From Liolophura sinensis (lineage: Eukaryota; Mollusca; Polyplacophora; Chitonida; Chitonidae), in the NCBI RefSeq assembly GCF_032854445.1, contig NC_088302.1, forward strand, positions 38,570,191 through 38,634,190: a stretch of DNA of 64,000 nt. The letters run 5' to 3'. Made by a program: the position numbers and the translations under genes. Shown one piece after another: positions 9,635-60,749 of this stretch. The stretch's first letter is position 1; each line of letters opens with the position of its first letter. Below the pieces are notes generated by a model. That model saw only the letters and a list, made by a program, of their open reading frames with translations. It was not told where the DNA came from and did not search any database.

Positions 9635-12600
9635 ATGTGGAAACAGGCTGTCAGGAGAGAGTTGTACCCTTTGGTGGAGACACAGCTTAAGTCTCTCTTG
9701 CAGCAAACTGGCCAATCGAAGTACACTCGACTGATATACTGTAAAGGTATATTCTGAATTTGTTCCAGAGCTTTCATACCTACACGTAAACATAGTCCAC
9801 CCAGTGTGTAGCCAAAGATCTCAACTGTCATCTGTTAATATGGGGTTAGGTGTAGATCACAGCTGAGGAGTCTTCCAAGTTAAAATATTGGCATTTAAGA
9901 ACAGCTTAGCGCTGGGAAACTCTGTACTACAAAATGTGTGCAAAATGACCAATACATGCATTAACCAGGCAAAACTCTGCCAATTTTTTCCACATACTGC
10001 AGTCTTCACGACCAGTACATCCAAGATAATTTACAGTTGTGACTTACTCTCATATGCTGTTTTGACATCGTAACAATATAAATCGAGTTGTTGCTCCCTG
10101 CGCATGTGTGGTTGACCTTTCATGACGTCCCTATGGTTTGATCATTTGTCTGTCAGTTATGACAGATAGAAAGCCATGAAAATGCAGAGGTGCGAATTTG
10201 CAGTTGACTGAAGGCTAAGGAGTAGAGTGACCCCTCTGTTTGTGCGAACTGTCAAATAAAGTTTGCAGTAACAGAAGGGAGCTTATCTTCGACAACTGTT
10301 CCATTCCAAATTTCAAGGAAAGGTCAACTGCTGTTGCGCATTCTCGCTTCACTGACCCGGATTTTAAAAACATGGCAGCGCATGGCGACCTGCTAAATAT
10401 GGGCCTATTTTTGACTTCAGCCAAGATTTACAGGAAAATGGTGATGTAAAGGCAAGTAGCGACTGAGGCAAAATGTGCAGAAATATTTTAACTTTCTGAA
10501 TTGCCGTGCTCTGTGTGTATTCAGGACGAATCTAATGTGCATGCTTCGAAATTAAACTGGGGGTAGCTCTTTGTAAGCATTATACCAGAATCGGGTCCAC
10601 ATGGCCCTCGGGCCAGCAAAGGTGGCCAGTGGTCCCCGTGTGTCATTGTATATAATCAATCCTTAGACCGAAGTCTTGGGCTTAGGGGCTAAGTGTTATA
10701 TGTTAAAATTCATAACACATCAGTGTAGGGGTGCTGAGGATACGCTAAGCTGGCCATATCCTGGCCCAAAGAAGCCATACAGTATCTGTGTACATGTCAC
10801 TTTGCCGACACTATAGCGGCTCTTCAGAGGTGTTCACCGTGTTTCGAGCAAGATCAACAATGACGTAATTTCGGAAAAAAATGACCATTTACGGAAAATA
10901 TGCATAATATAGAGGTATAATTAACAGGTATAAAAATACCCCCGAAAATTTGAAAATTATTTTTTAACAGAAATTCTAGAGCATAATTTTCTTCATTTTG
11001 CTTAGAAACATAGTCTTTGTTTGAAAATTCCTTTTCATGTATCCTTTAACCTCTCTTGTGCTTAAAAAGTGACAGGAATTATGGACTTTCATGCTTTGTA
11101 GTAGACAAATGGTTTAACATTAGGAAAATATCATGAAGTACAAAGCAGTGTTGAATGAGTGATTGCTTGTAGATATCACAGTGATTCTACATAAACACAG
11201 CTTCAAGAGCCAGTTCCGGCCATATGTGGGAAGGTCTGTCAGCTACCTGCGGATGGTCGTGGGTTTCCCCCGGGTTCTGTGCGGTTTCCACCCACCATAA
11301 TGCTGGCCGCCGTCGTATAAGTGAAATATTCTTGAGTACGGCGTAAAACACCAATCAAAAAAAAAAAAAAAAATCAAGAGCCAGTTCTTACCAAATACTA
11401 CACTTTCTAATGGTCAAGAGATAACAAGGATTTCATTGTGCGACAAAATTTCATTCAGGTGTAAAAATAATTGTAATGAAGAAGGGAAGATAGTTAGATA
11501 GAAATTAAACAAGGGAAATTTCATTTCAGTATTAAAACTTCTGTAGACAACTAGACAAAAATTAAGATACAAATAGATGTATGCATGCTTGTACTAATGG
11601 GCAAAAAATAACTTTTGCAATCTTTTGTCAGTATGCCAAAGACCTTATTCAGCCAGACTGAGTGTGCCCAAGAAAATGATTCCTGGGATTCCCTACAGTA
11701 AACAGTTCAAACTGAGCAGATCATTCCTGGCGAAAGAGCTATGTTGTCGAACTGTCAGTACAGATCAAGGCGGAGCTAAAGATGAAAACCATAGTGATAA
11801 AAAGACAGCGGGGACAAAGACAGCTGAAGATGATACTTCAGGGAGCACAGACCAATCCCCTAAAGTGGTCAAAGGTCAGTGGACTGCATGTAAATAATGT
11901 ATACATGTGTCCACTGTTCTACATGTGCATGTATATCAAATGAATGAATCGGGTTGGAAGTACAGGTAGTTTACGTGGAATGTGTGCTGTTCTTGGTTTT
12001 GGTCACCTTGACAATTTACCTTCAGCATCAAAAATTATTCCAGAAGAGTTTTTCATTTCAGAACTGTGTATCTCGTAATAATTTTACTGCAAATGCCAGT
12101 CGTTATATCCATACTTCCATTGTGTTAGTTAGGAAGTAGACCCTTCAGTAGTCTGTATGGACAGAAAGCAACAGGTGAAAGTGAAACTTTTTTAAACACT
12201 TCTCAGAATTTAAATGTATAAAATTTTGCTTAATAAAGTTGCACCTCACACCATAGCCATGTCACTCTCAACTGACACATTGGATTAATGTTTATGGCAT
12301 TTACAGATGGACATAGTTGCTTTACTCTAATAACTCTGCTAAAACTGTGAGCTGGAACTTGAAATTCTTTATGGATACTATAATTATTAAATTTTCAGAC
12401 CAGATATTTTCATGTTTTTGTCTTTCCAGTCACTGCCAAAATTAGAAAGAAGATTGATTATAACTACTCTGGTAATATTTTCATCACCCCGGTCCGAGCC
12501 ATGAATGAATACCTGCTGTCAGCTGAGTATGTCCTGTTCTCTTTGAAATTTGTTCAACAAAATGGGTAAAATGTTTTTCTCTTTGTCATGTGAATATAGA

Positions 12601-15600
12601 CACGACAACCTACATGATAATGCATTAAGTTGTACTTATCTCTGTGGTACAAGAAAGGCAGCTGTCCTGGTACACCATGCTGAAGTGGGTGACTGTAATG
12701 ATTCCTCTTTGTCATGTGAATATAGACATGACAACCTACATGATTGTGCATTACATTGTACTTGTATCTGTGGTACAAGAAAGGCAGCTGTCCTGTTACA
12801 CCATGCTGCAGTGGGTGACTGTAATCATTCCTCTTTGTCATGTGAATATAGACATGACAACCTACATGATAGTGCATTACATTGTACTTGTATCTGTGGT
12901 ACAAGAAAAGGCAGCTGTCCTGGTACATCATGCTGCCGTGGGTGACTGTAATCATTCCTCTTTGTCATGTGAATATAGACATGACAACCTACATGATAGT
13001 GCATTACATTGTACTTGTATCTGTGGCACAAGAAAGGCAGCTGTCCTGTTACACCATGCTGCAGTGGGTGACTGTAATGATTCCTCTTTGTCATGTGAAT
13101 ATAGACATGACAACCTACATGATAGTGCATTACATTGTACTTGTATCTGTGGTACAAGAAAAGGCAGCTGTCCTGGTACATCATGCTGCCGTGGATGACT
13201 GTACTGTGCAGTCTTTTCACGAGCAGTATAGTTTTGACTGACCAACTGGGAAGGTATGCCAGCAACCTGTGGACAGCATGGGATTCTCCAGTACTGGGGC
13301 CACTTTCACAAAACTTCGTAAGTCATGTTTCTCGTATCTTTCTTCGTAAAAGATGTTTGGGTTATTTTGCCATAAGGCGACGTCATTTACGAGAAAAGTT
13401 ACACAAAAGTGATTTATGAAGTCTTGTGAAAGTGACCTCAGTCTGGTTTCCTCCCACCATACCATTGACCATAATGTATGACATACAATACCAATCAGAT
13501 AATCCTTATATGACAGAATAGCAAAAAGTAGAAAGAGAAACATTGGATACCTTATGTTATTCCATCAGTGTTTTGGCACAATCGAGAAATGATGAATGTG
13601 CAGTGGTTTTGAACAAATATCAGTCATGTTGGTCCACAGGTTGTATTAAAAGAGTTCATCATTTACCGATCCAACCATCGGAATGGTGAAATAGAAAGTT
13701 AATGTTACTTCAGTTGACTCTTTGTTTTCATCACATTTAACAGTCACATATTCTTACCTTATTTCAGTGATTTAGACTCATTACCTAAATACATGCGACG
13801 AAGTCCATATGAGCACAAAGCCCCGCTAACGATGTACATGAGGTCAGATGTTGAGAAAAGGTAAAGGATGCTGATGTCACATTGAATGAGTTTAATAGAA
13901 TTACAAAACAGACATTGTAACACTCATCATAGCTCAGTAATATTTACTTAGACGTACGTGATTGAGTGCTAGAAATATTATAATTTGAATATATACATTT
14001 CACAGTAAATGATTTCACAAAATTCTCTGTCTGATTTAGTTCAATTTTTAAAACAAATCTACATGCAAATACATAACTTATTTTCCATCTCAAGTGCGTT
14101 ATTGCAAAACTAGTTAATTGTTATGAAAGTCCATGTGTTACATACATGTAATTGTTGTTGTTGGGTATCAATATTAGCTCAGTGATCATTATAGTTGTAT
14201 AGTATTGATATTGATGATATAGAAATTGAATGCATTATTGTTCCAGAGCTATGGAAATCTGGGGAGATGCGGAAAGATTGGCAAGGGAGAAAACGAGGCG
14301 ATTCTACAGGGACAGCCTGAGTGGTAAAGTCTCAGGTGAGTTATCTCCCTTGTAGAATCATATAATCACATGTAGATGTAATGTCAATGGTCAGCTGTTT
14401 ATTTTTTACATATTGTCTATGAGTACCCCACAGTGATGTGAGTGTCGGGTGTCATTGGCATGGTGTACATGTCATACTGCTACAAGACAGAGTTGTCATA
14501 TTTGTCAAAAATATGTTAAAGGACAAGACAACACCTGGCTACATGTTTCAATGAAAAGCATGATAGTCAGGTTTTGTAAAAAGTATCATTCTACATGCTA
14601 TTCGAGATTTCACCGAATAGCATGTAGAACAAAATGACAATACTGCACAAATGTCTTGTGTGAATCAAGTAAGCCATCTTGAGTATTTTATCCAATAAAA
14701 CATGTTGCTATTAGATTGTGCAGCCTAAGCTGTGGCTTAGCCTTTACCTATACACTCCATGCAGTGACATATGATAACACAGAACGACTGCGTAAGACAT
14801 CATTCTGAGATCGTTTACAACGATTTATTTACGTGTAGTCGAAGGGCCATTTCACACAGTGTTGTGGGACAGGTCTGTATCATTTACAGACCACCACAGA
14901 CGTAAATGAGTTGATTTATAAGCCGTGTAATATTCAACGATCGTATTACATCTTACGTCAGACAGCAGCCAGCATACCGTCTCAGCACAAACCGCATTCA
15001 TCTCCCCCAGTAGCCCTTAGGCATACCTAGACATGATGTTCAAATTATACAAATATATTTTTTTGTCATTCATGTTAGCGTTTAGACAGCATGCAGTTGC
15101 TAAATAACAAATATCACAGTCAGTGAAAAATTCATGTGGGATGTCGATTTATGGGAATGAGAAAATGGCATCTATTGGATAATGCTTTAAATTAGTTAAA
15201 TCTTATCATAGTCTTTTTATCTCTACATTTATTAGAACTGAAGAATTTGAATTTTGCCCTTTGTCTTTCTCTCATACAAGGGATATTTTTTCTCTGTTTT
15301 ATAAAATGCAGTAAAATTATTGAAACAAACTGACACTCTGTGGTTGGGTATCAGGCGTTTCTGTTTGTATTTTCTCATTGGCATCTTCTTTAATACCGAC
15401 TGTTTGGAGGAGCTCTTAGGTTTTGTGACATTACTTAAGATAGCTATAATATGGCAAAATGGCGTCACCAAATGAGTGGCTAGGTACTGACGATCGTTTA
15501 CTATTTATTTTGTTGATAAGAGGTGTAGAATTTTTTCAGTATTTTTAGAACATTTCTGGAATACTGCTTTATTATTTAATTCATTTTTAGTAGCTGACTT

Positions 15601-33200: not shown

Positions 33201-36200
33201 CCATCATAATGATGGCTGCCATCGTAAACTGTAATATTCCTGAATACAGTGAGAAACATGTAAAGTTGGAATTGTAAAAAGGAACTTTCAGAAACACGTA
33301 AAGTCCCGAAAATGATCGTTTTGATTGTAAAACTTTTCTAACTTCACGAAAAACAGTGGCTCTATAAGGTGGATCATGGGTCAAAATGTTGACCACCTGA
33401 GTGATAACCTTGACAGAAATAGAAGTCATCCATTGAAATGTATAACAGGTAGGCTCAAAAACATTGTAGAACAAGAAGAAAGTATATGTAGATAAATACA
33501 ACAGACAGTCATTTATGAATCTGCCATCTTGAGCATGTTCAGGATTAAAGGATCCTGCAGGGTTTTCATTTAGAATTGGAGAAGGAGGTCAGAGCTCAAA
33601 AGTAGGTGGCTGAATTGAAAGTAATTATGCCACAGTTACTATTAATTTAAAGAGGAAGAATATTAAAAGTAGGCAGCTAGGGGTACGGCAGTAGACAGCT
33701 GTCTACAGCCAGCTACTTGCCCTTTTTGAATACCTTGTCTTTGTGATGACCTTGGATCATTTTGATGCTATCTTGAGCTCTTAACGTGAATGAAATGAGC
33801 TATCATTATAAATCAGTCTTCCTCTGGCCCCTCACCCTCCCCTCATTTCCAGAGCACTGTATTAAGCCAGTGGAAAATTGGTAATAGCAAAATTTCCTAA
33901 ACCAAGCCAGCAAGAGCCATATCACTTGATCTGGCACATTTGGCAGGTTAGAACTTTGAATTAGACATTAAATACCTGAAAATTTGATGGAAAGGAGAAA
34001 GAAAAGAATGTTTGTAACTGTACTTGTGTAAAAAATACTTCCTATGTTAAAAGAAGAATAGATTAAAGACATTTTTCTACATGTACCTGTATGCTCTACT
34101 ACATACTTTTCCTCTTTAGGGTGCCTCCATGGCCACGTGGAGCTAGTCAGCACAATCACAGGAGCCTCACGCCAACGTGGTGGCCATGAATCCAGCTTAA
34201 GTTGAATTTCTCTTCAGTCGTACATGTAAATGAGAAGATCTTCCAGCAACTTGCGGATGGTTGTAGGTTTCCCCCGAGCACTGCCCAATTTCCTTCCACC
34301 GTCATTATGAAATGGTGAAATACCCTTTAGAACAGTGTAAAACAACAATTAAATAAATAAATAAATACTACATGCCCGCGACGCATAAATATAACGGAGA
34401 GAAATAAATCTTTGGTTTTTGTTGCTGTTGTAGTGTGAAGGCGATGTTGTTGTTGATTGATTGCAAGTACCGCCTGCTAGAGAAGCAGCATCCTTCCAAG
34501 GATTACAAATCCAAGAGGAGGAAAGATTTTCTGAATGGCTCTGGGGTGCTAAGTGCTATAGAGGAATACCTGCCCGAAGATTCAGTGGACCTTCTGCCCC
34601 AAAAAGACAGAGAGGTGTCCGTTGAAGAGCCATCCAAACCTGTGGTAAGTCCACTCATGCTCTTCTGGCCTGCCCAAATAGGGCCTCCCTGAATTACCTT
34701 CCTTGAGGCCCTGTAAAGTGGCAAGTTTTTGGGAGCAAGGTTCATTTAGGTGATACCTCTGAAATGGCTAATGGGAGGTTTTCAGTTAAAGCAGCTTTTA
34801 GAAGACTTACATTCAGGATGGATATTAACTTTGTGTACTGATTTTGAAAGCCCAGGATGAATATTTTGTATATTTTTTTTTATGCTGTATAAAGTAGTTT
34901 TTTTATGCTGTATAAAGTAGTTTTTGTTATGCTGTATAAAGTATGCTGTATAAAGTAGTTTTTATTATGCTGTATAAAGTAGTTTTTGTTATGCTGTATA
35001 AAGTAGTTTTTGTTATACTGTATAAAGAACATTTGAGAATCCCCTAATGGAATCGATTTCAGCCAACAAAAAATGCCTATCTAAACTGAAAAACATCAAT
35101 ATCATTTAAGATCTCTGGACATTTCTGCAGTTGTTACTGTCTTGATATATAAACCTACAAAATGCATACAGAGGTCCCACTGTTTGAAGTTTCATGCCTC
35201 AGAAACTAATTTCACGTTTAAGGTTACTGTATAGCTGGCTCTTGTGTTAAGTTTGTCACAGCAAATCTGTACATGTATGTCACACTTAAGAAAGTTTGTG
35301 AGTGACTTTCCAAAGGTTAGTGGTTTACCCCGTTAGCCCTGGTTTCCATCACTTTAAAACTGATTTGCCATTGAGCTTGTAAAAATGTAGCGCTAAACAA
35401 AAATCAGTCAGTCATTTTTTTTTGTTTTTTTTTTTTTGTCAGGCCCCTGGAGAAGACATAGGCTATGGCTCTTTGGGTGAGTAAGCGACTATACATATTG
35501 TACAGTACACAATGTTTATTTATTAAAAGGTAGATTATTTTCACATTTTATGAAAAGTAGTTATTATGTAACGAATCAAAGTATGATGTTTCATGATGTC
35601 ATTTATGATTTGTTTTCAAAGGATTTGTCAAATTTAATGCTGTGTTTTTTGCAGGTTACTATGCATTTGGGCGAACTGGTCTTCTGATTGTGGATGCGGC
35701 CATTGTTATCTCACAAACAGGTGGGTGGACATGTTTTGTCATGAACCTGTGGGTGGACGTGTTTTCTCACAAACAGGTTGGGGAGCATGTTATTTCACAA
35801 ACAGGTGGGTGGACGTGTTTTCTCACAAACAGGTTGGGGAGCATGTTATTTCACAAACAGGTGGGTGGACGTGTTTTCTCACAAACAGGTTGGGGAGCAT
35901 GTTATTTCACAAACAGGCGGGTGGACGTGTTTTCTCACAAACAGGTTGGGGAGCATGTTATTTCACACACAGGCGGGTGGACGTGTTTTCTCACAAACAG
36001 GTTGGGGAGCATGGTATTTCACAAACAGGCGGGTGGACGTGTTTTCTCACAAACAGGTTGGGGAACATGTTATTTCACAAACAACCGGGTAGACATGATA
36101 TCTCACAAACAGGAAAGTGGACATGTTATCTCACAAACAGGAAAGTGGACATGATATCTCACAAACAGGAAAGTGGACATAAAATGTGTGTAATGTTACG

Positions 36201-39200
36201 ATCTTCTAAATTTTAAGGGCTTGTACGTACTTGATATTGTTGTAACAAAGTAATGGAAATATTTCAAAATGTTTGCCAATTTTATGTATTTAAATGATAG
36301 CATCTTGAGGTATCTTGACTACTCTTCTAATTATATATGTAGTAGGCCTACTTGGTAATATCTTTAAAAGTGTTGGCCAACTTTGTCTATTTTTTGCCAG
36401 TAGCATCAGTATAGTTTCATGAAACAGTAATGACCAAAGATAACTGCAGAGGAAAGATTTATAAAAATATAGCTACATGTATTTATAAACCACCAAGATC
36501 TACTTGTACGTGTAGTTGTGTGGGTTTTTTTTTTTAAATTCGCAAGAGATCACTGTGTGTCAGTGTGAACAAAAATAGTTAGGTATAGATTTAGGATGCA
36601 TTGTGATAAAGGGCAAAAAATATGATACAAGCAATATTAAATACCAAGGCAAACTAACAGACTGAAAGAGCATGGACTGTGTAAACTTTGTAAAGTTAGA
36701 TACAGATTAGATAGAATATCTGAATTGATATGCTATGTGTTGTAGAGTTATTGATTTATCAATTGTAGTTAGCATATGTGACAGTGGGTGTTTCAGGGTG
36801 TCTTCTTACCTATCACTGGCTGATATATGCATACAAATACATGTCCTTGTATGCCAGCTTTACTAACTGAAACAGGGACTGAGATTGATTGTTACCAGGT
36901 GTGCATACACGTAAAAGTGACAAGGATCAATGACAGCTTATGTATTTTGCCGTGGTTGTAGAGGAGGGAAAAATAACGAACCTGTTGTTGTTTAGCGTCG
37001 TTGCTGAATAACCCTAAATGTTCAACCTTTTCAACCTCTAAATTACCTTTTTCAGTGGAATTTATGCATACAATTATTATGAAAAACTCTAGAATGATTT
37101 GTTCATAAAACTGTGCAGATTATTTCTCTACAACCCATACCGCTCTCAGAATGTGTCAGAATCTGGATCACAATATTGGTTGGAAAGGTTGAAGGATTAA
37201 GGTAGGCCTATTGTTATTGCCATAGCAGGGCCTTGCGATGGGGTTTAGCATGCCAGCACAGCGTAATGACCCAGGAGCCTCCCAACACTGCAGTTGTTGT
37301 GAGCTCAAGTCCAATTCATGCCTTCTTCTTGTCTGTCCATTTTGTGGGAAGGTCTGCCAGCAACCAGTGGATGGTCATGAATTTCTACCAGGCTCTGGCC
37401 GGTTTCCTCTCACCAGAATGTTGGCTGCTGTCATAAGCGAAATATTCTTGAGTGCTAAAATACCTCTGAAACCAAGTTTTTGCAGACGGAAATATTAAAA
37501 TTATATGAAGGAAACCCTACGGAACAGAGCTAACACCACTGTTCAAAAACCTTTACGATGAATAATACTATTTAACACCTATTTATACTAAGTGAAAAGT
37601 CCTCTAACATGTTTCTGTAAAATTTTCTCGTGATGTGGCAATATTCCTTATGTGAGGACGAATCGGGCAGATATGGCGTCGAGTAACACAATTATGTTGG
37701 AATTATGTCATGAGTGTTTGAACGCACGACGTCATTTGTGGCTATACGTCACGATGGGTGACAACAAATGTTCTTGCATGACAGCACACCACTCCAGGTA
37801 AAATTGGAATGAGAGAAAACTTCAGTTTCTTTATAATTATTCTCCGAAACTATGGTTTTAATACAATGCAAACTTTTTTTAAGATTTAGTGAAGCAATTC
37901 AGACCATCTCCATTCTTATCATTTCACTCTGCTTGTAAGAAATATAGGTCTTGACACTGAAGTAGCACTAAACTAAATGCAATGTTCTTGAGTAAAGCCG
38001 AGGATACACTAGACAAATGTTTTCACTTGTACAGGCGTATTTTGAGAATTTCTAAAAATCTGTCTAGTGTTTCCACACCTGTGACAGCATATTTCGCAGG
38101 CAACGTTAACCGCTTCAAAATCCACTTGTATCAAACATGTCAGAGATACTAGCAAAGAAATATGCATGCCATGCCATCTGTCCATTTAGTATGTCCGTTT
38201 CAGCGAATTTCGATGATCGAGATGACCAATCAAACAACATTTAATTGTGTCATTGTGTCACATGATTTACTAGGTCACGTGACATAACTTACTGACCATG
38301 ATTTCTGAAAAAATCTACCTAGTGTGTTTGCAACTATGCTGTGAATATCGCCAGCATATTTTGTGGGTGGAGACAAACAATCTTCCTATAGTGTGTCCCT
38401 GATATAAGGGACAAAACATGTGTAGCCTAAACAGTTGTGTGAAGAGTCACAAGTGTTCATAAACAGCTGTCAGATTTTCATGATATTGAATACGTTACAT
38501 TCCACAGAAGTGCCTGACAATAATCCATATTATCTACGAGATAATAATATGCTAAACACTGAATAAACTTCAAAATTCAGCTATCAATATTTTATTCTGT
38601 TTTAGTTGACTGTTCATTAAATTCCACCGGCTATTTTCACTAAACATTTTAGAATTCCTCCGTTTAGACGCCTAGCCAATGAAGTTGCTAGGTGAGAATG
38701 AGCTCATACCTGCCGCCAACATGTGTATTTCCATCAGAAAGATGGTGTGTTTGTCAACCCATAAACCCTGACCACATGATGTATTAGAGATAACAGCACA
38801 AAACTGTATCATTTAAACCATTTCAGCCAGTAATCAGAGAAAATGTAGAACTTTCACCTTTGGTTATAAATTTTAATACTTTTATTAAATATTTTGCTTC
38901 GCACCCACTTTTTAAATAGTTCTGTACTTCTGTTTCAGGTTTTGTGTGTGCATATCTCATTTTTATCTCAGAAAATCTCTCGGACTACTTACATGGAATG
39001 AAGCTGTAAGTTGTTATGCATTGTTCCGTAGAAAATTCTGGAATTTTATTAATAAACTCATCTGTATATATAAAAGGTATACATAGCTAAATTCTGTGGA
39101 AACTTCTATGAAAGAAATTAGTTCTTCAGTGTGCACATATTTTTCTGACTTAATATGATGAGACAGTTGTTTGTACCATTTTATACATGTATGTACAAGT

Positions 39201-45200: not shown

Positions 45201-48200
45201 TACTCACCTGTGTATAACCAGACATACCTGTATGATTTAATGTCCACAGTGTTTTTTGATGACAGGTGAGTCCCTGGACATCGCCATGATTGTCAAGAGC
45301 TGTCTCTGCCTGGCACTTTTCTTCACCTACCCAGGTATGTAAAACACAGCCCTGGAATTTGTTAAAAGTAAAAGCATGTAATATTACAGCATTATTATGT
45401 GATGGATTGTCTTGTTTGTGAAAACAATTGTGGTAAGTTTTTGGAATTACTATATAACTTGTAAAGGACTTGATATCTTGATACTTTAAGAAAGCCCTAT
45501 ATAAATAGTGTACATGTATAAATGTGATAGGCCTACAGGTCAGCAAGGTGTCATTTATATGCTTTGACTGGTCTAGGAACAAGGTAGTGTCTGAGACATG
45601 AAATACACTGAAGTGGCACATTAAACCTCAAATTAAACATCTCCATTACTGATATAATGTGCATATATCTCTGGCTCAAATGGCAAAACTCTTACCCAAA
45701 GGCTCTTGAGCAATTTATCGCCACGATATGGCTGAAATATTGCCGATGTGGCATTAAGCCATAATCATCCTTGAGCAATTTGTTTTATCCTAATGGAGTG
45801 AATGGGTAAAAGAGTCACAAATTGTGTATTTCAGATGTATAGTCATAGAACGTGGAATATATCAGCATGACTACGGAAGTGGTTTAAGGATAGCAGTGTT
45901 TGTTGTGTAACCGAATACATGTGAACGTTGTTGTGTACCAAGTGAAATCCCAAGAATGCACAGCATTCAAGGGATTTGACGAGGTACAAAACAAGTTCAG
46001 CTGTATCTTGTTACTTAACAGATACCAAAACTAGGGTGTTACAGTCTATTCTACCCCCAAAAAAGAAAAATTTGTGCCGTTCTCTATCACTCCCTCCTCG
46101 AAGGTTATGCATTTTAGATCAGTCAGCGGCAAGCTTAGTTGACATAGGTTTTTCAAAGCTTTTCATTTTTGACACCATGTCTTATTGTTGCATGATGTAG
46201 GAATGTAAAAGTGTACTGTACAGGTATCATGACGTCATACCACTGAGCTCAGATTGAAACGTCATGAAACAAATGTATTTTTTTCCATGTCATGGCACCT
46301 GCGTGTAAAATATCAAAAATGTAAAAACATTTATAAACTGTGCAAAATAAGACTTTTATCTCTGCAGGAAATTTCGATATTTCACGTGTATATAAATCAT
46401 AAAAGCAAATCTGACATATTTGTAGAAATGAAAGGCATGAAATGATATTATTTTGGGAGGTTAATGTATGCCAGTGTGCTGCATGACACACTCATTGTGT
46501 TATGAAAGGCCATCTCAGTTTAACATGTATATTTGCAGACAGCCCATAAGAATGGGGTAGCATTAGTGTCCGGTTTTGGAAATGTTGCAGTGGTGAGAAA
46601 TCCCTTAATATTGCTGTTTCAGTCATGATATTTCCTGTGGTGAAGATACTTGAGGGCCACTTCCTTCCATCAGCAGAGACTCGAATCTGTGCAGGGGTAA
46701 GTCAGTGGACAGGTCACTTTTGTGATAATCCATACCATGCCTGTAATGGGAAAAGTAATCCTTCTAGATCAAGCCAGTTCAAGGGATGTACTCTTCTTGC
46801 TCTTTTCTGTAATTCGTCACCATTTCTATATAGTTGTGCTCGTAAAGGCAAAGAGATAGTTCACAAGCACCGCAGCTTCGCAGTAGAGACTATTTACCCT
46901 AATTCTTCATTCTTTTCAACCAACTCAGCAGCCAGTATTTTGAAACATTCTGAGAGAACTATGGGGTGTAGAGAAATGATTATCACAGTTTTATGAAGCT
47001 TGCATCTCCCGAATGACACAAACACATCAATAAATTCCACTGAAAAAAGTGATTTGGGGTTGAAAAGGTTGAAGATTTACAGTGAATGTTTTTAACTCAG
47101 CTTGGAACAACATGGTCCGACAGCAAATATTCCATAATGCAAATGTGTCTGGAACTGTATTAGATAAACACTACTGTCTTTTTGTCATTGCCCTAGTACA
47201 TCTGCAATATATTGTCAAATGGGCATAAGCGGTACAGATTGCTACATGTACATTTTGTGTCACCTGTTAGGGCTGCCATCTGGTTAGAACCTGGAACTAA
47301 CTTATTAGTATAATATTATATTAGTCCCAGTTAGAAAAAACTGCCAGGTGTCTGCCAGCAACCTATGGATGGTGTTGGGTCATGTAAAAGAGAACTCTGC
47401 TGTATAAGGGCTATATTCTGTATAGCATAAGCATCAGTCAAACAAATAATCAGCCACAGTGCTTGAGCCATAACTTCCAGTGTGAATAAGTTGTTTACCT
47501 GTGCTCAAGCCATAACTTCCAGTGTGAATGAGTTATTTACCTGTGCGTGAGCCATAAATTTCACCATTAATGAGTTTGTTTAGCTGTGCTTGAGCCATAA
47601 ATTCCACTGTGAATGATTTCTTTACCTGTACGGGAGCCATAAATTCCACCATAATTGAGTTGTTTACCTGTGCTTGAGCCATAAATTCCACTGTGAATGA
47701 TTTCTTTACCTGTACGATAGCCATAAATTTCACCATGATTGAGTTGTTTACCTGTGCTTGAGCCATAAATTCCACTGTGTGTGAATGAGTTGTTTACCTG
47801 TGTTTGAACCTAAATTCCACTGTGAATGATTTCTTTATCTGTATGTGAGCCATAAATTCCACCATGAATGAGTTGTTTACCTGTGCTTGGGCCATAAATT
47901 CCAGTGTGAATGATGAGTTGTTTACCTGTATTTGGGCCATAAATTCCAGTGTGAATGAGTTGTTTACCTGTGCGTGAGCCATAAATTCCACCATGATTGA
48001 GTTGTTTACCTGTACTTGGGTCATAAATTCCACTCTGAATGAGTTGTTTGCCTGTACTTAGGCCATAAATTCCACTGTGAATGAGTTGTTTACGTATACT
48101 TGGGCAATAAATTCCACTGTGATTGAGTTGTTTACCTTGTTACAGAATGTGCTGCGCTTGGTGCTGGTGCTGTTGACAGGTTGTATTGTATCCATGATAC

Positions 48201-51200
48201 CAAATTTTGCACACCTGATGGCTCTGATAGGGGCCACATGCTGCAGTCTGCTGGCCTTTGTACTGCCTGGCGCATTTCATCTCAAGCTGTTCAAGGGGTG
48301 AGAATCTTGCATATGAAATTTTTTTTTTGTTGTTTTAAAGAAGTCATCATTGAACCAAGTGTATATATACATCAACAAAGTATCCCACAGGAAACACAAA
48401 AACCATCACTATTTACCTTTCTGATGTTGCACAACCGAGATATCGCAGTTCAAAGTAACTAAAATGACGCACATTGAGACAGTTGAAAGTGCCACAATGT
48501 TATCACTGTTAACCAATCAAGCGTGCAGTATTTCTACTTAGATCACCTGAACCCTGTTCTGCCTTTTAACCATAACTGTGTGCCTGGTGTATGAGTGACT
48601 CCACGTCATGTTTGCAGTTGCTCTAACATAGTGCATCCCATGGCTGTGTGAGAATTCCTGAGTAAAAGTTATCAAGCAAGTCATGAAAAATGTTAATGTC
48701 CATAAAAGTCTGTTCCTCTTTGCTTCATAAATAACTCAGGTTATGTTATCTTTCTTTTTAAACAAATTCTCAACTTGAACTGTTAGTATGCTGCAGCGTG
48801 TACACCTTCTTAACAATGATCAAGATTAAGGGGATGTCGAGCTATGTGGGACAACAATTTGTTTATCTTCATAGAGATAAAGCTATTTAACATTTAACGC
48901 AGCCTTTTTTTGAATATCTTTTTTAAATAGTAATTTCCCTGCATTTTCATATCTCATTTTCAGTTCCGCTATCACGCATTCTTGACCTTTGATGTAGTTT
49001 TTTTTAATTCTTTTTTCATCCTGCAGACCAGTTCATTTATTAAACTGCAGGTTGCACATTCTTTGGGTAAAAAGGATTGCTTACCCTATTTCTTCTAATT
49101 TTTGGGACAGTTATTAGAAGTGTGGAAAGGAGAATATTACATTTCTTTACCAACCTTTTGGAATAGTAAAGATATGAGCATGTTGTTCATTAGATGGTCT
49201 AACCATGTGAGATAAAAGAAACTCAGTATTCCTACTGTGATTAGATATATATTGGCTAAAATGAGCAGACCAGGGGTCCCAAAAATTAGAAGACATAGGT
49301 TACATTTTAAAGATTAACAGACACTTCCATCCTCATGGCCTGCACTTGGCAATTCATCCAAAATTTGTTAGCAGTGGAAGTGAAGTTAATGTACATGTGA
49401 AGTGAACATATGATGGGCATCTGGAAGATTGACATGTATGCTTCAAAAATCATTTGCTTATCCAGAAAAAGGTTTTGTGAAATTTACCTTGTCAAACCTT
49501 AAGTTTAATAAAATATTTCAAATTTTGATGGCTATCTTGGATACTTTTTCAGCTTCCAGTGCTATGACACAATAGCCCCTACCAGCAGTATAGAAGTGAA
49601 ACGTTTTATGTTCAGCTCATGCTGGCTTCCTGTCTGGCTGTACACGGGAGGGCCTGTCAGCAACCTGCGGATGGTTGTACATTTCGCCCAGGCACTGCCC
49701 AGTTTCCTCCGACCATAATGATGGTTGCCATCGTACAAGTGAAAAATTCTTGAGTATGGTGTGAAACTCCAATCAAATAAATAGATAAATATATAATTTT
49801 TTGGACATGCCATAAAACAGCTTTTTCACATTTTGTAGGTCATTATCAAAGTCAGCTTTAGCTCTGGATATATTTTTCATCTGTCTAGGAATTGTCGGGT
49901 GAGTATTTAAGTCTTTGAGTAATATTAATGAAGAGTAGCAAAATATACACTTGACTATGAAGTGTGATATTTTTAGCTCACTGTAGTTTATGTGGTACCC
50001 TGAACGTCAGCATCCAATAACAGGGAAAGCAATGTTAAACAAAATGTTAGGGGTGGTATCCTAAAAAGTACTGCAGGTATTGTGATCAGGGTTTTGCACA
50101 CATGTGGAGCACAGTTGCACAAGGGGGATATTCCATCGTTGATTTGATGTGTACATGTTAAATACCATAAATTACTGAGTTCATGACTTAGTGAATTGTG
50201 TATTAGAGTCAGTGTATTAGAAACAAAATGTTAGGGATCGTATCTCAAAAAGTACTGTAAAAGTATGTATGGGCCTGAAGTTTTACATGCATATTAAGCA
50301 CAATTACACAAGGGGGAATGGTCCATCACTGATGCTCTATGTGCATATTAATTACTATAAATTACCAAATTCATGATTTCAGTTGTTTATGTAATGAGCT
50401 GAATTTTTTGCATTCATGTGTCTCCTGCAGGCGAGATCTGTAGTAGCCTTGCTACAAAATATAAGTTATTAATTGATCCTGAATATAAATTATTTGATTT
50501 GAATGAAGCATACCCTTTTTAACCTGGGCATTCTTATAATAATTAGAGATAAGATAAAGTGTACACAAGTTTGTCATGTAAATAGTAATACTGGTTTCAA
50601 ATAATTGTGGGTAATAAGAAAATCATTTTTGGAATAAAATGTTCAAAATCTGGTTGCAAAATAGTTAAGAATACTTGTAAACTATATCATCGCTTCATTC
50701 GTAACAATAAATGTTTCTCCTTTATTTATGCGAGCGAAGTGGCATCATCCAGGAAGGCAACAAAATCTCTAAATGTAATTATTATAATTAAAAACAAGCC
50801 AAGATTTAACTAGATTTAATAGGTCAAAGTGTGGGAAGGTCTTCCAGCAACCTGCGGAAAGTCATGGCTTTCCCCTGGGCTCTGCCCAGTTTCGTCCAAC
50901 CATAATACTGGCTGCCATCGTGTAAGTGAAATATTTTTGAGTAAGGCGTAAAACACCAGTCAAATAAATAAACAAAAAATAGGTCAAAGTTCTCTGTTAA
51001 TTACTGTGGTGTTGGGCAGTGGGCCATTATCTGTCATTCATCATATCTTGGAATGTACTAATACCATATGTTATCTGGCAACAAGGCTCTAATACCCAGT
51101 TTTCTCTCCACAGAGCAATATTGGGTACATGGGACGCCCTCAAGAGGCTGGGTGGAGAAACTGAACACGTCCATATAGTACCCTTAGTGACTAAGTTCAA

Positions 51201-55269: not shown

Positions 55270-56345
55270 GCCAAGGAATGAATGTTTTTGTTGCTTTGGA
55301 TCATTAGACGTAGCCAACGGGATTCATACTTCGTTTCTTTAGACCACAGGTCATGGCCGAATTAATCAAACCTTTGTTGTTGTTTTTCTGTGGCTTTAAA
55401 CCATTGGTCTTGGTCGCACGGTTGAATGTTTTGTTGTTTTGAACCATTTTGCTTTGTTGAATAGATCAAGGCTTTGTTGTTTTAGACCAATAGACTTGGC
55501 GTAATGGCTGAACGCTTTCTATGGCTTTTGACCATTATGCTGGACCAAACGGGCCATGCCTTTGTTGTTTTAACTTGGGCGAATGGATCAATGCTTAATT
55601 GTTTTAAACCAGAGGTCATGTACGAATTGATCAACGCCTTGATGCTTTAGATCATTAGAACAGGCCAGATGGGTCATGACTTCATTAGCTTAGACCACAT
55701 GACATGCGATTTGGTCAATGTTTTGCTGCGTTAAACCCCTAGACTTGACCAAGGCTTTGTTGTTCTAGATCATTGAACTTGGCTGACTGGATCGACACTT
55801 TTTTGCTTAGTTTAGAACATTGGACTTGATCTAACGGATTACGCCTTTCTTGCTTTAGGCCATTAGATTTCTTCGATTAGATCGACCATTGCTGCTTCAG
55901 ATCTTTAGACTTGGCCAAATGGGTCAAGGTTTTACTGCCTTAGACCATAAGACTTGTCCGAACGGATGAAGGCTTTGTTACTTTGTACCATTAGACTTGG
56001 CTGAACGTATCAAGGCTTGGTTACTTGAGACCATTAGACTTGTCCGAACGGATCAAGGTTTGGTTACTTGAGATCATTAGACTTGTCCGAACGTATCAAG
56101 GCTTTGTTACTTTAGATCATTAGGCTTGTCCGAACGTATCAAGGTTTGGTTACTTTAGACCATTAGACTTGTCCCGAACGGATGAAGGCTTTGTTACTTT
56201 GTACCATTAGACTTGGCTGAACGTATCAAGGCTTGGTTACTTGAAACCTTTAGACTTGTCCGAACGGATCAAAGCTTGGCTGCCTTAGGCTATTAGTCTT
56301 GGCCAAATAGATTAAGGTTTAGTTGTTTTAAACCATCAGTCCCAT
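55270..56345 (+). repeat. 43-bp minisatellite with a five-monomer higher-order repeat
   Basis: About 24 monomers resembling 'gaccattagacttgtccgaa' plus 'cggatcaaggcttggttacttga'. Early units are diverged and late units similar. The block beginning near 55956 is repeated at 56171, 215 bp or five monomers later, including shared variants. It lies between the 3' end of the AVT3-like gene and that of the FGF gene. Confidence 0.9.
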
Positions 56346-56396
56346 TGATCCCAGGAATAAAGCTTTGATTTTAAAAACAAGTTTTACAGCAAACAA

Positions 56397-56973: not shown

Positions 56974-59553
56974 TCACAAAGCTGCCAGAGCCTCTTTCTG
57001 GATCACGAACCTTGCCTCCGTGCTGTCCGGTCTCACCTCAGACGGACGCATGATGTTGCCGTTTTTCCGTACCCCCAGGAACCATCCAGGGTGAAGGAGA
57101 GATTCCAGTAAACAATATCCCGTGGGTCCCTGGTGGATGATGAAATGGCAGGTTTCATCGCCAGTACCCTGAGGAATGAATCATACTAGCGTAAGAAAAA
57201 ACATATATGGATGTACATATAATTTCTATCATGTTAAAACGCATCCATACAGAATCTTTTACTGTATATATGCTCACTTTAGTTATTAAGACTTGGCTAC
57301 TACCCAGTTACTGCTCTAGAACATTGGTGTCAGAAACACCATGCGCTTGTGCAAGTTTATTTGTAAACTAACTCGTGAACAAATCAGTTATGCTAATTAT
57401 CACGTTACTTCACTACCAATACTTTATAACCACTCTTGATTGAAATGGGTGGTCAGTTTAAAGGTTCTCTGGGTGTCACAACTTCATATACAATTGCTAT
57501 GTGGGGCTGTATATGTGTCTTTCTCTAAAAGTTTGTTACGATTGCCGATGGTATCTGTATATCAAGACCTACAGCATGAAATACTGCCTTTCACATCATG
57601 CTTTAACTTTCCAGTGGATGGCTTCGGTGGCCTAAGCGCTTTCGCCTCGAAGTCGGGAGACACGGGATCTAGTTCAAGGTTCGGGTCATACCAAAGACTT
57701 TAAAAATGGTACTTGTTGCTCCCTCGCTAGGCGCTCGGTGCCGAGACCTAAGAGCAAGGAAACAGGACTGGTTGACCCTGTGTCAGCATAATGTGACTCG
57801 ATAGTGTCGGGTGACGCTTCAGTGGTGGCAGCATTTTGGCGCCATGGACTCGCTCTGTCACAAGAAAACACAGTATATATACACACACCTAATGACTCCT
57901 CGTCGTAAAATGGCAGAAAAATTGTCAAGTACGACGTAAAACCCCAAGCATACATACATACATACCTTTCCAGTGACTAGACCATTCTTGATGCCCACGT
58001 GAAGCCTAGAATTTTTCGTGCTTTGTATCATCACCTTCCGAGAACCAATTACAACCAGACGCAGTTGTTCTACAAAACGGAATTTCGCAAACACAGGCTT
58101 AAGGTTTTGAGCAGTTCAATATATTCATCGTTTTATGATATTATTTCGTGATTTAATTTGACTTTAACACCTTTGCTTCAACTTCGAACCTAAATTCAAT
58201 TATCCACAAAAAACAACCAAACCAACAGAGTTACCAAATGTCATTAGATGTCTGGAGTCTGAGATCAATCCATCGTTCAAGTTGATAACAAATCTATTTC
58301 AACAACCTGTGGTTTTCCTTCCGGTTCTGGCCACCGTCGTATAAGTGAAATATTCTTGAGTATGGCGTAAAATACCAATCAAATAAATAAATAAACAGAT
58401 CTACTTTGCTTTGATTGAAAATGAATGAAAAGTCATGGCTTGATATCACCGAACTAGTATTATATGGTGAGAAATATAAAGATGGTGTGGCTAGTAAATG
58501 TTATAGGCCAACTGCTGCTTGTAATTAAGAGAGTAACCAAGATTCCAAGCAACGCATCTCATAAAATCGTTTTACGCTAATGTGAAACGTACATGATAAA
58601 TGTAGCTGTAGACCAAAGATAATAGGCTACTAACCATAGTGTCCGAACACCCCTCTGCCATATAGCTCCCCGACTGACAGGATATCCAGGTATTTACCGC
58701 TCCCCCGGGCCCAGATCCTCACAAAGAAGGACGGGACAGTTCTGCCATTCTGTATCACGACCGGTTTGTTCTGGTTCGTCTGACTCAGGTACTGCAGCTC
58801 ATCCACGTGCAGGCTGCAGATCTCGACCAGTCCGATATTATCCACGAATGGATCACAGAGGTTTAGAGGGTGAATGAAATACGGCGCAATGTCGGCTGAT
58901 GCTTTCACAGGGATGCTGCCTGGGGATATAGGCGTCAGAGGTATGGCGTCACCTTTCAACTGTGGACTAGATACGGATAATGGTGACGTCTCCGGAACTT
59001 TCCGTTCCGTTGCTGCAGCTGCTCGAGCTACCCCTCTTGATTTATCCTTGCCATCGAGGACACGGTGAGCTTTGACGGTGTTGCTTGTAACGTGGGCCAA
59101 ACCCGAACGGCTTGTCTGGAGGACACCGGACACCGGGGTTGACACCGGCTTCCTGGTGTGTCCAGTGTCCAATATACCACGCACTGACTTATCAGTAGAT
59201 GAACAATTGTTTATACGGGGGTTTGTTTCATCGCTTACAGGCAGAGGGTGAGTTTGAGAAAAGGTAAGCACGGCTTGGTGGTAAGCGGGAGGTGAGTGTT
59301 TGGCTGTTTTTTGGATGGACTGTATCCCTGACGACTCTTTGGACATCTTGGCCATGGATTCCTTGCTGGTCCTCGGTGACGGCTTTGGGGTGGCCCTGAC
59401 CTTGGTGAGGGGGATGGGCGCTGGGGATGGGACTGGAAGGTTCAGCTGACTAGATTTGGACAAGAAGCCTGGGATGATAACGGACGCATCGGCCATTGAC
59501 AGGGTTGAGGATTTACCGTCCGGCGCGGATCGTCGAGCTACGCGCACGGCCAT
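56974..59553 (-). CDS. Fibroblast growth factor family ligand, long N-terminus, 3 exons
   Basis: FGFs are beta-trefoil ligands of receptor tyrosine kinases. Exons (minus): 59553-58635, 58069-57966, 57168-56974; phases 1 and 0; 405 aa. The trefoil is at about 275-405: RGSGKYLDILSVGELYG, QLRLVVIGSRKVMIQST, NSRLHVGIKNGLVTGK, then C348-H-F350 with Y359 at the PROSITE FGF spacing, and PGWFLGVRKNGNIMRPSEVR, the family-typical W-x-x-G-x-x-x-N-G strand. The 104-nt middle exon with phase-1/phase-0 borders is the classic vertebrate FGF arrangement (recalled knowledge). The FGF signature is only partly kept: V replaces L/I/M, and T precedes the cysteine. Residues 1-270 are low-complexity, rich in S, P, T and K, with no signal peptide; an in-frame TAA lies 24 nt upstream of the ATG, which has A at -3 and G at +4. 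So this is either a non-classical or intracellular FGF, or an alternative first exon is missed. The subfamily is not assigned. Confidence 0.87.
57617..57965 (+). mobile_element. SINE family B, full length, at the FGF exon-2 donor
   Basis: Head 'gatggcttcggtggcctaag' with B-box 'ggttcgggtc', body 'cagcataatgtgactcgata', 3' module 'gtcaagtacgacgtaaaacc' and a (CATA) tail. It is flanked by 'ctttccagtg' at 57607-57616 and 57966-57975, a target-site duplication. It is antisense to the FGF gene, inserted exactly at the exon-2/intron-2 border. Confidence 0.92.
58306..58398 (+). mobile_element. SINE family A, 3' fragment, FGF intron 1
   Basis: 'ggccaccgtcgtataagtga', 'cttgagtatggcgtaaaata' and AAAT repeats. 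Confidence 0.8.
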
Positions 59554-60749
59554 TATACCAATGATAAAGGATGCTTACTCACTTCGGATAAGGAACGGCC
59601 TGTAAAATAATAAAAATCATTTCCAGACAATTATCTTTATAATTTATTCCTGATTAAAATAGTAACTCCAAGAAGAAACAAAGTCTTCATTTTCGTATTC
59701 AATATTTCAACACTGGCTTTATGATGCTCTCTAGAAATACCTTTCTCTCTAGAGGTTGATACATTGAATGCCAACAGTAAGGTTCGTCTTCTCTTGGTGT
59801 TAAGTTTCTGCTCTACGTTGTGAAATGAGCCAATGATAAATCTACATGGATGATGGTAATCATCTATTCCTCTTAGCCTTTCTCATCTAAAATTAAACCA
59901 AATTATCAGTCGAGCCTATTGCCTGGTAGGCGCTCACCCGGTAGGCGCTATAGGCACTTGGCCATCGCAGTGGGGTTTGGAATACTAGTCAGAATTTATA
60001 AACCACACTCAATTTAATGCAAAGCAAATTTTATAGTTTATAGTCTGGACTAAAGGGTTCATAGCGGCTTTAGTTGCAGATACATATCATCTCAACCAAT
60101 TTGGATTGATTTCGGTTTTTCTACTATACACAGTCTCTTATATTGTGGGTTATTTGTCAGTAGCGTAGAATTACGTGAACGTATCACCCCCACCCCTAAT
60201 TATGTGTAGCCAACCCGGTGATCGACTACTCTGTCACAAACCTCTAGTTAACGCTTTGTCATTGTCACCCAGCTTAAAATTAAACCTATCTATTTGCAAG
60301 ATGTCACTATTTGTGTTCTTCGTTCGTAATAGATACACAGAGTCCAGTGATACCCATGCGTGTTATTTCATCACCAACTAATACAGGCCTATTTTTTTCT
60401 AATTATTTGTCGTAATAAATGCGAATGGATGGAATCTAACCAGTCATCTGAGTTTATATTATAATTGCTTGAGAGTCTTTCACAACCATCGTTCTAGATT
60501 AGATTAACAACAGGATTCATTTGCCTGTGAGATGGTTAGATTACACTAAATTGCATTCTGTGGGTTTTAACTATCTTGTGAAGTGTTTAACTGAATATCT
60601 TGTGAACGAGAAAAACTGTCATGTCCAACGTTATTCTTACTTATACAGAATTGGTACCACTACAAGATACAGATATATACAATGCCCCCGTGACGCATTA
60701 TAGATGCGTTGGCGATGCTATATGTAGGCGGATCTGTTGATAAGTAATA
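59554..60749. other. FGF upstream region, unassigned
   Basis: It should contain the FGF promoter. An alternative 5' exon with a signal peptide could lie here or further right, but no convincing candidate was seen. No repeats were recognised. Confidence 0.35.

What the first reader, a model, noticed from the sequence alone, without database searches (positions are those of the whole stretch)
57606..57976. A SINE supplies the working splice donor of FGF exon 2, and the displaced ancestral donor is dead
Seen: a full-length SINE-B with a 10-bp duplication ('ctttccagtg') inserted precisely at the exon-2/intron-2 border. On the minus strand the exon ends CACTGGAAAG and the intron begins GTATGTATGTATG, where the G fits an 11-bp duplication and TATGT comes from the SINE's CATA tail. 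The displaced copy of the border, 349 bp further on, reads CACTGGAAAG then TTAAAG. Changing one base (position 57606) would restore GTAAAG, a strong donor. Inference: insertion duplicated the border, the SINE tail created a replacement donor, and the old one then lost its +1 G. The 104-nt exon length is preserved.
Basis: partly seen in the sequence, partly recalled or inferred. Interest (0 to 1): 0.82.

Follow-up and report, generated by a model that had tools for sequence, protein, structure and literature searches.

The report
Retroposon tail replaced FGF splice donor
In a chiton, a small jumping element appears to have landed exactly at the end of an exon of a growth-factor gene and to have supplied a new splice signal, leaving the predicted protein unchanged; this is an unusually readable example of a process already known in outline.

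Summary
On the minus strand, exon 2 of an FGF ligand gene (58069-57966, 104 nt) ends CACTGGAAAG and abuts an antisense, near-full-length repeat of SINE anatomy (57617-57965) whose CATA tail reads GTATGTATG on the gene strand. The exon end is duplicated beyond the element (57607-57616) and is followed there by TTAAAG, not GT. Sibling copies show similar duplications. Splicing at 57965 keeps exon length and intron phases as in paralogous FGF genes of the same genome and gives a complete FGF domain. The tail donor pairs with U1 better (-8.7 kcal/mol) than the inferred old donor GTAAAG (-6.8), so calling the old site strong overstates it. That the old site once read GT is inference: a 10-bp duplication fits the letters equally well. 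The assembly matches Liolophura japonica in published statistics. No RNA or ortholog could be examined. By one exact pattern, only three places in the genome outside one tandem array read AG|GTATGTATG before the tail; this is the only one with a recognised exon end. Transposon-supplied splice sites are known; this donor hand-over is a variant.

The parts
58635..59574 (-). First FGF exon visible here (open frame; its 5' end was not determined); ends CACTATG, donor GTTAGT, phase 1
   Evidence: open frame and translation; the FGF match begins in it once the exons are joined
57966..58069 (-). FGF exon 2, 104 nt, acceptor TTTTGTAG, ends CACTGGAAAG, phase 1 to phase 0
   Evidence: paralog exon 2 lengths 104, 107, 104 nt
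57960..57965 (-). putative working 5' splice site GTATGT, made of the antisense CATA tail (the first G, and possibly the first three bases, may instead belong to the duplication)
57617..57965 (+). SINE-type repeat copy, antisense to the gene, tail (CATA)n; 87.5% to the family consensus
57966..57975 (+). target-site duplication, copy kept in the exon
57607..57616 (+). target-site duplication, displaced copy, now intronic
57601..57606 (-). displaced border TTAAAG; inferred former donor GTAAAG with the +1 G lost at 57606
   Evidence: sequence; former state is inference
56974..57168 (-). FGF exon 3 as read to its first stop codon, 195 nt; acceptor ATTCCTCAG

Best explanation
A CATA-tailed SINE inserted antisense, by target-primed reverse transcription, across the exon 2/intron 2 border of an FGF ligand gene. 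The target-site duplication (11-13 bp) left the last ten exon bases in place next to the SINE tail, and the antisense tail reads GTATGT, so a full donor AAG|GTATGT was present at once. The former donor was carried 359 bp downstream with the second copy of the exon end. Its +1 G later became T. Intron 2 is now spliced from the SINE tail to the exon 3 acceptor, and the mRNA is the same as before. Shown here: insertion, duplication, position, phase, domain continuity. Inferred: use in RNA, the former GT, the order of events, the priming mechanism.
For: Exact flanking duplication beside a repeat with many copies. Sibling copies with duplications of 8-15 bp. Exon 2 length as in three paralogs of the same genome: 104, 107, 104 nt, with the border to exon 3 in the same alignment column in the two that include exon 3. 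Joined exons 1-2-3 give one FGF match over profile positions 3-123 of 124, 42.8 bits, against 39.5 with a 12-nt extension, no match for the read-through product and 35.1 when the exon 2 residues are left out (a score comparison only, since real skipping breaks the frame). U1 pairing -8.7 kcal/mol for the tail donor, -6.8 for the inferred old donor, -0.1 in register for the present displaced site (U1 sequence recalled). Use of the displaced place would add 359 nt and an in-frame stop after 35 codons. An AG|GTATGTATG junction is rare: the first antisense GTATGTATG is preceded by AG in 0 of 63 sibling loci that have one, of 87, and an exact pattern finds 3 places outside one tandem array.
Against: No RNA and no ortholog were available. 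A 10-bp duplication with the tail ending in C scores the same, and then the base before it was always A and no GT stood there. Exon 2 alone is not recognised by Pfam, and the gene is divergent (19% and 16% to two paralogs over exons 2-3, 9% to the third, of which only exon 2 was given and whose end that alignment misplaces). GTATGT repeats every four bases, so slippage to a neighbouring donor is possible. The copy is old (12.5% from consensus). No empty copy was found in the assembly: a query from the exon side matched only this place (the intron-side flank was not searched).
Confidence: 0.74

Rival explanations
1. The duplication is only 10 bp, the base at 57606 was always A, and exon 2 formerly ended elsewhere: for example 12 nt further, at GAT|GTGAAA, which keeps the frame and adds four residues, or one base earlier at AAA|GTTAAA. 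The SINE then moved the exon end rather than replacing a donor in place.
For: 10 of 10 identity over the shorter duplication; both GT dinucleotides stand in the displaced flank; 3 of 11 accepted sibling duplications are 10 bp or shorter, and more would be if the weaker 7-8 base candidates were accepted.
Against: The present exon end is where the paralogs have it. The 12-nt extension lowers the FGF score from 42.8 to 39.5 bits, a modest difference. U1 pairing in register is +2.3 and +6.4 kcal/mol for the two alternatives (-2.4 and -1.6 when the register is left free). The AAA|GTTAAA site shifts the frame.
Confidence: 0.14
2. The insertion damaged the gene: exon 2 is skipped, retained or spliced at mixed sites, and the gene is a weak or dying FGF.
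For: No expression evidence; divergent sequence; a four-base ladder of GT sites in the tail.
Against: The three exons are open and bounded by AG acceptors and GT donors where these were examined, although the insertion is old (12.5% from consensus). Skipping exon 2 (104 nt) breaks the frame.
Confidence: 0.09
3. The SINE is itself an intron, introner-like: donor in its tail and acceptor in the displaced duplication (GGAAAG|T), so that the inserted piece is removed alone.
For: The displaced copy ends in AG, and introners that carry a donor and borrow the acceptor are described in passages of PMC9860276.
Against: Intron 2 is older than the insertion, since paralogs have an intron at the same place. 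After such removal the next GT sites are out of phase or weak. By eye there is no pyrimidine tract before the displaced AG.
Confidence: 0.03

Closest known systems
Exonised or splice-site-donating transposed elements in human and mouse (PMC2394776, passages seen)
   Same: A transposed element supplies a splice site to a host gene; the category 'transforms an existing exon to an alternative 5'ss exon' is the nearest.
   Different: Here no SINE sequence is predicted to enter the mRNA and the old donor is gone, so it would be a replacement of a constitutive donor and not an added isoform. The donor comes from the simple tail, not from the SINE body.
Introners (PMC9860276, passages seen)
   Same: Target-site duplication plus an element-borne donor can leave the mRNA unchanged.
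   Different: Introners make new introns in coding sequence. Here an old intron gets a new donor and is lengthened.
Drosophila transposons that add donors and acceptors to genes (PMC7605248, passages seen)
   Same: Antisense insertions provide splice sites.
   Different: Those passages describe chimeric transcripts from intronic insertions, not an insertion on a splice border.
Maize Ds and similar elements spliced from transcripts near their ends (recalled, no paper seen)
   Same: Splice signals at element ends together with the target duplication.
   Different: DNA transposon, intron created within an exon.

Membership tests
SINE (non-autonomous retroposon) | Dispersed copies with target-site duplications of variable length | tested here: met
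   40 other matches listed; 11 distinct sibling duplications of 8-15 bp accepted out of 35 full-length siblings examined
SINE (non-autonomous retroposon) | Pol III-type head from a small RNA gene | tested here: inconclusive
   Consensus holds A-box and B-box strings (motifs recalled) at 12 and 56, not found in this copy; ARAGORN found no tRNA in the consensus, Rfam none in 4 siblings or in the window copy
SINE (non-autonomous retroposon) | Simple 3' tail shared with a LINE partner | tested here: inconclusive
   75 of 87 sibling loci have two or more CAT[AT] units in a row, 41 of 87 three or more CATA units; 48 of the 87 loci were chosen by such a tail. LINE partner not sought
FGF ligand gene | FGF domain over the curated cut-off | tested here: met
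   joined exons 42.8 bits, cut-off 24, profile 3-123/124
FGF ligand gene | Core introns in phase 1 and phase 0 around an exon of about 104 nt | tested here: met
   three paralogs in the same genome. Vertebrate lengths are recalled only
Transposon-derived splice site in use | Transcripts joined at that site | not testable with these tools
   No RNA data in the tools; RNA-seq of five tissues is mentioned in PMC11068029
Introner | The element itself constitutes a new intron, repeated in many genes | tested here: not met
   Intron 2 is at the paralogs' position; by exact pattern two other AG|GTATGTATG junctions lie outside one tandem array, neither with a recognised exon end upstream

The most novel reading that the evidence does not exclude
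CATA-tailed SINEs are self-healing at 5' splice sites when inserted antisense: the duplication keeps the exon end, the tail gives GTATGT, and the tail's TAC end could even pair with the GTA of the target donor during priming. Insertions at donors would then be tolerated in one orientation only, and donor turnover without protein change could be a recurrent route by which introns are re-founded on retroposons in chitons.
Probability: 0.15. Interest if true: 0.6.

Novelty: new variant of a known kind. Interest (0 to 1): 0.42.

Why it matters
It records the steps of a donor hand-over in one locus: duplicated exon end, new donor from a retroposon tail, old donor apparently dead. It shows how an insertion on a splice border can leave the predicted coding sequence of a developmental signal gene unchanged. 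The assembly is published and RNA-seq exists, so the key step can be checked directly.

Tried and rejected
Looked for a second haplotype or empty copy of the site: a 304-base query from the exon side found only the window itself; the intron-side flank was not searched. Looked for a tRNA in the SINE head: ARAGORN on the consensus and Rfam on four siblings and the window copy gave none. Asked whether SINE tails make AG|GTATGT junctions commonly: AAAGGTATGTATG occurs 70 times in the genome against 71 for the reversed control pattern, so there is no excess. A tail pattern with exactly three repeats found one place, on C13. The relaxed tail pattern gives 86 places, of which 83 lie in one tandem array on C4, one is the FGF site and two are elsewhere, without a recognised exon end in the translated 180 bases upstream. 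These patterns allow no mismatch, so older tails are missed. The same pattern without the preceding MAG gives 1,494 overlapping matches, several per copy and with that array included, so no rate per copy was computed. An early pattern was a guess of mine that is not the window's sequence and bears on nothing.

Papers: ten searches ran. Six of them asked about splice sites and elements; the others asked about SINE families, molluscan FGF and chiton genomes. In the listings I saw no title or abstract start that describes this locus or a SINE tail replacing a constitutive donor, but listings were capped (one search showed 20 of 85, one search showed 10 of 75), two searches returned nothing and the library is open-licence only. 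Passages were seen in PMC11068029, PMC12005716, PMC9860276, PMC2394776 and PMC7605248; no whole paper was read. The sigma-70 promoter scan is irrelevant to an animal gene and was ignored.

Full report
What is in the sequence. CTTTCCAGTG stands at 57607-57616 and 57966-57975 and nowhere else in the window on either strand, flanking 57617-57965 without a gap. The base given as the start of the finding, 57606, is the differing base. On the minus strand the exon ends CACTGGAAAG at 57966 and continues GTATGTATGTATGTATG; the displaced copy continues TTAAAG. When the 5' flank was compared with the sequence after the element body, 0 of 300 shuffles reached the score of this pair; with a longer flank 1 of 100 did.

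The element. It belongs to a large family: the search listed 40 other matches (39 copies and a second piece of one), at 73-81% identity to this copy, from 5,612 first-look candidates of which 40 were scored, so counts are lower bounds. I worked with 87 sibling loci, of which 48 were chosen by a CATACATAC tail pattern and so are biased toward that tail. A consensus of 32 full-length copies is 369 bases long. This copy is 87.5% identical to its body; the median of 71 siblings with more than 200 aligned bases is 89.0%, and 14 of the 71 are lower. It is thus an old, ordinary member. The consensus has A-box and B-box strings (recalled motifs), but ARAGORN found no tRNA in it, and Rfam found none in four siblings or in this copy. 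'SINE' therefore rests on size, dispersed copies, variable duplications and a simple tail; the tRNA origin is likely, not shown.

Sibling duplications. Of 88 loci (87 siblings and the window), 36 were full-length with enough flank to examine. Seventeen of the 35 siblings had p of 0.033 or less. I kept 11. Dropped were L035 (dinucleotide repeat), L004 and L032 (same segment as L023), and L024, L062 and L054 (7-8 bases, lying 5-11 bases from the element start); L027, also 8 bases and 5 from the start, was kept, so the cut is not strict. The 11 lengths are 8-15 bp, 8 of 11 are 11 bp or more, and 4 of 11 carry at least one mismatch; with the three short ones counted in it would be 8 of 14. For this copy the method reports 13 bp with one mismatch (TAACTTTCCAGTG / TACCTTTCCAGTG), but the exact 10-bp match scores the same, so the letters alone do not decide.

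The gene. Pfam FGF finds seven stretches in the genome, among them exon 3 of this gene. Joining exon 1, exon 2 (58069-57966) and exon 3 (from 57168) gives one FGF match over profile positions 3-123 of 124, 42.8 bits, cut-off 24. Alternatives score lower: 39.5 bits with the exon 12 nt longer, no FGF match for the read-through product, which stops after 35 added residues, and 35.1 bits with the exon 2 residues left out (this is a score comparison only, as real skipping breaks the frame). Exon 2 alone gives no match. In three other FGF genes of the same genome the matching exon is 104, 107 and 104 nt, phase 1 to phase 0, each followed by a GT donor. In an alignment of exons 2-3 the border falls in the same column in this gene and the two paralogs whose exon 3 was in hand; the third, given as exon 2 alone, was misplaced at its end by the aligner. 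So the present exon end is the conserved one, and intron 2 is older than the insertion.

The donor. U1 duplex energies (U1 sequence recalled): tail donor AAG|GTATGT -8.7 kcal/mol; inferred former donor AAG|GTAAAG -6.8; present displaced site -0.1 in register (-1.3 free); the 12-nt alternative +2.3 (-2.4 free); the one-base-earlier alternative +6.4 (-1.6 free). Donors of the paralogs' exon 2 range from -5.4 to -13.4 in register.

Was the old donor a GT? This is inference. If the duplication was 11-13 bp, the displaced border read GTAAAG and one base changed; a change of C to A is seen at 3.0% of consensus C sites in the siblings (167 of 5,580) and 4 of 81 in this copy, so the step is unremarkable. 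If it was 10 bp, there never was a GT, and exon 2 must have ended elsewhere, against the paralogs and the domain fit. The present sequence does not show whether the loss of the old donor came through relaxed constraint or was favoured.

Is the junction a family habit? Apparently not. Of 63 sibling loci with an antisense GTATGTATG, none has AG before the first one. AAAGGTATGTATG is no commoner in the genome than its reversed control, 70 against 71. The relaxed tail pattern with M-AG finds 86 places: 83 in one tandem array on C4, the FGF site, and two others, neither with a recognised exon end upstream. These patterns are exact, so degraded tails are missed. The FGF junction thus seems to owe its AG to the exon. 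This is what the donor hand-over predicts, and it speaks against a frequent recurrence and so against the novel case.

Where it comes from. The genome held has 632 contigs with C1 of 96,433,062, C9 of 37,343,639, C4 of 25,057,479 and C5 of 19,479,325 bases. PMC11068029 gives for the chiton Liolophura japonica 632 scaffolds, longest 96,433,062, N50 37,343,639, and scaffolds 12 and 13 of 25,057,479 and 19,479,325 (passages). The total differs slightly (609,464,459 held, 609,495,693 published). I take the identification as secure. The same paper mentions RNA-seq from five tissues, which makes the main claim testable.

Comparison. Splice sites from transposed elements are well known: additions to isoforms in mammals (PMC2394776, passages) and flies (PMC7605248, passages), and new introns with element-borne or duplication-borne sites in introners (PMC9860276, passages). 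This case differs in that an old constitutive donor is replaced, in place, by an antisense simple tail, with no predicted change to the mRNA. I saw no such description in the listings of the six searches that asked about it in an open-licence library, with capped lists, which is not proof of absence. Verdict: real, well preserved, a variant of a known kind; the RNA step is missing.

Noticed in passing
G000:C4:22646944-22653348: A tandem array with a unit of about 58 bp in which many units carry CAGGTATGTATGTTTGGGGTTT, which resembles the antisense SINE tail; 83 of the 86 matches lie there.
   Followed up: no
G000:C12:20974602, 21095041, 21211290, 21271377 (L032, L026, L023, L004): Four copies of what looks like the same SINE insertion, with nearly the same flanks, within 0.3 Mb: apparently a segmental duplication.
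   Followed up: no
window 58635-59574 (-): The first visible FGF exon has a long open frame (about 280 residues, serine- and proline-rich by eye) before the FGF core, which seems long for a ligand; its start was not determined.
   Followed up: no
L041, L042, L043: Three further FGF genes or parts of them, two about 56 kb apart on C8; exon 2 of L042 is one codon longer (107 nt).
   Followed up: partly
window 12528-13285, 35592-36235, 47459-48210, 55829-56382: Several tandem arrays with units of about 126, 28, 42 and 43 bp; open frames run through some of them.
   Followed up: no
sibling SINE copies: Tails occur as CATA or CATT types; of the two only CATA gives GT on the other strand, so they differ in their possible effect on splicing.
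   Followed up: partly
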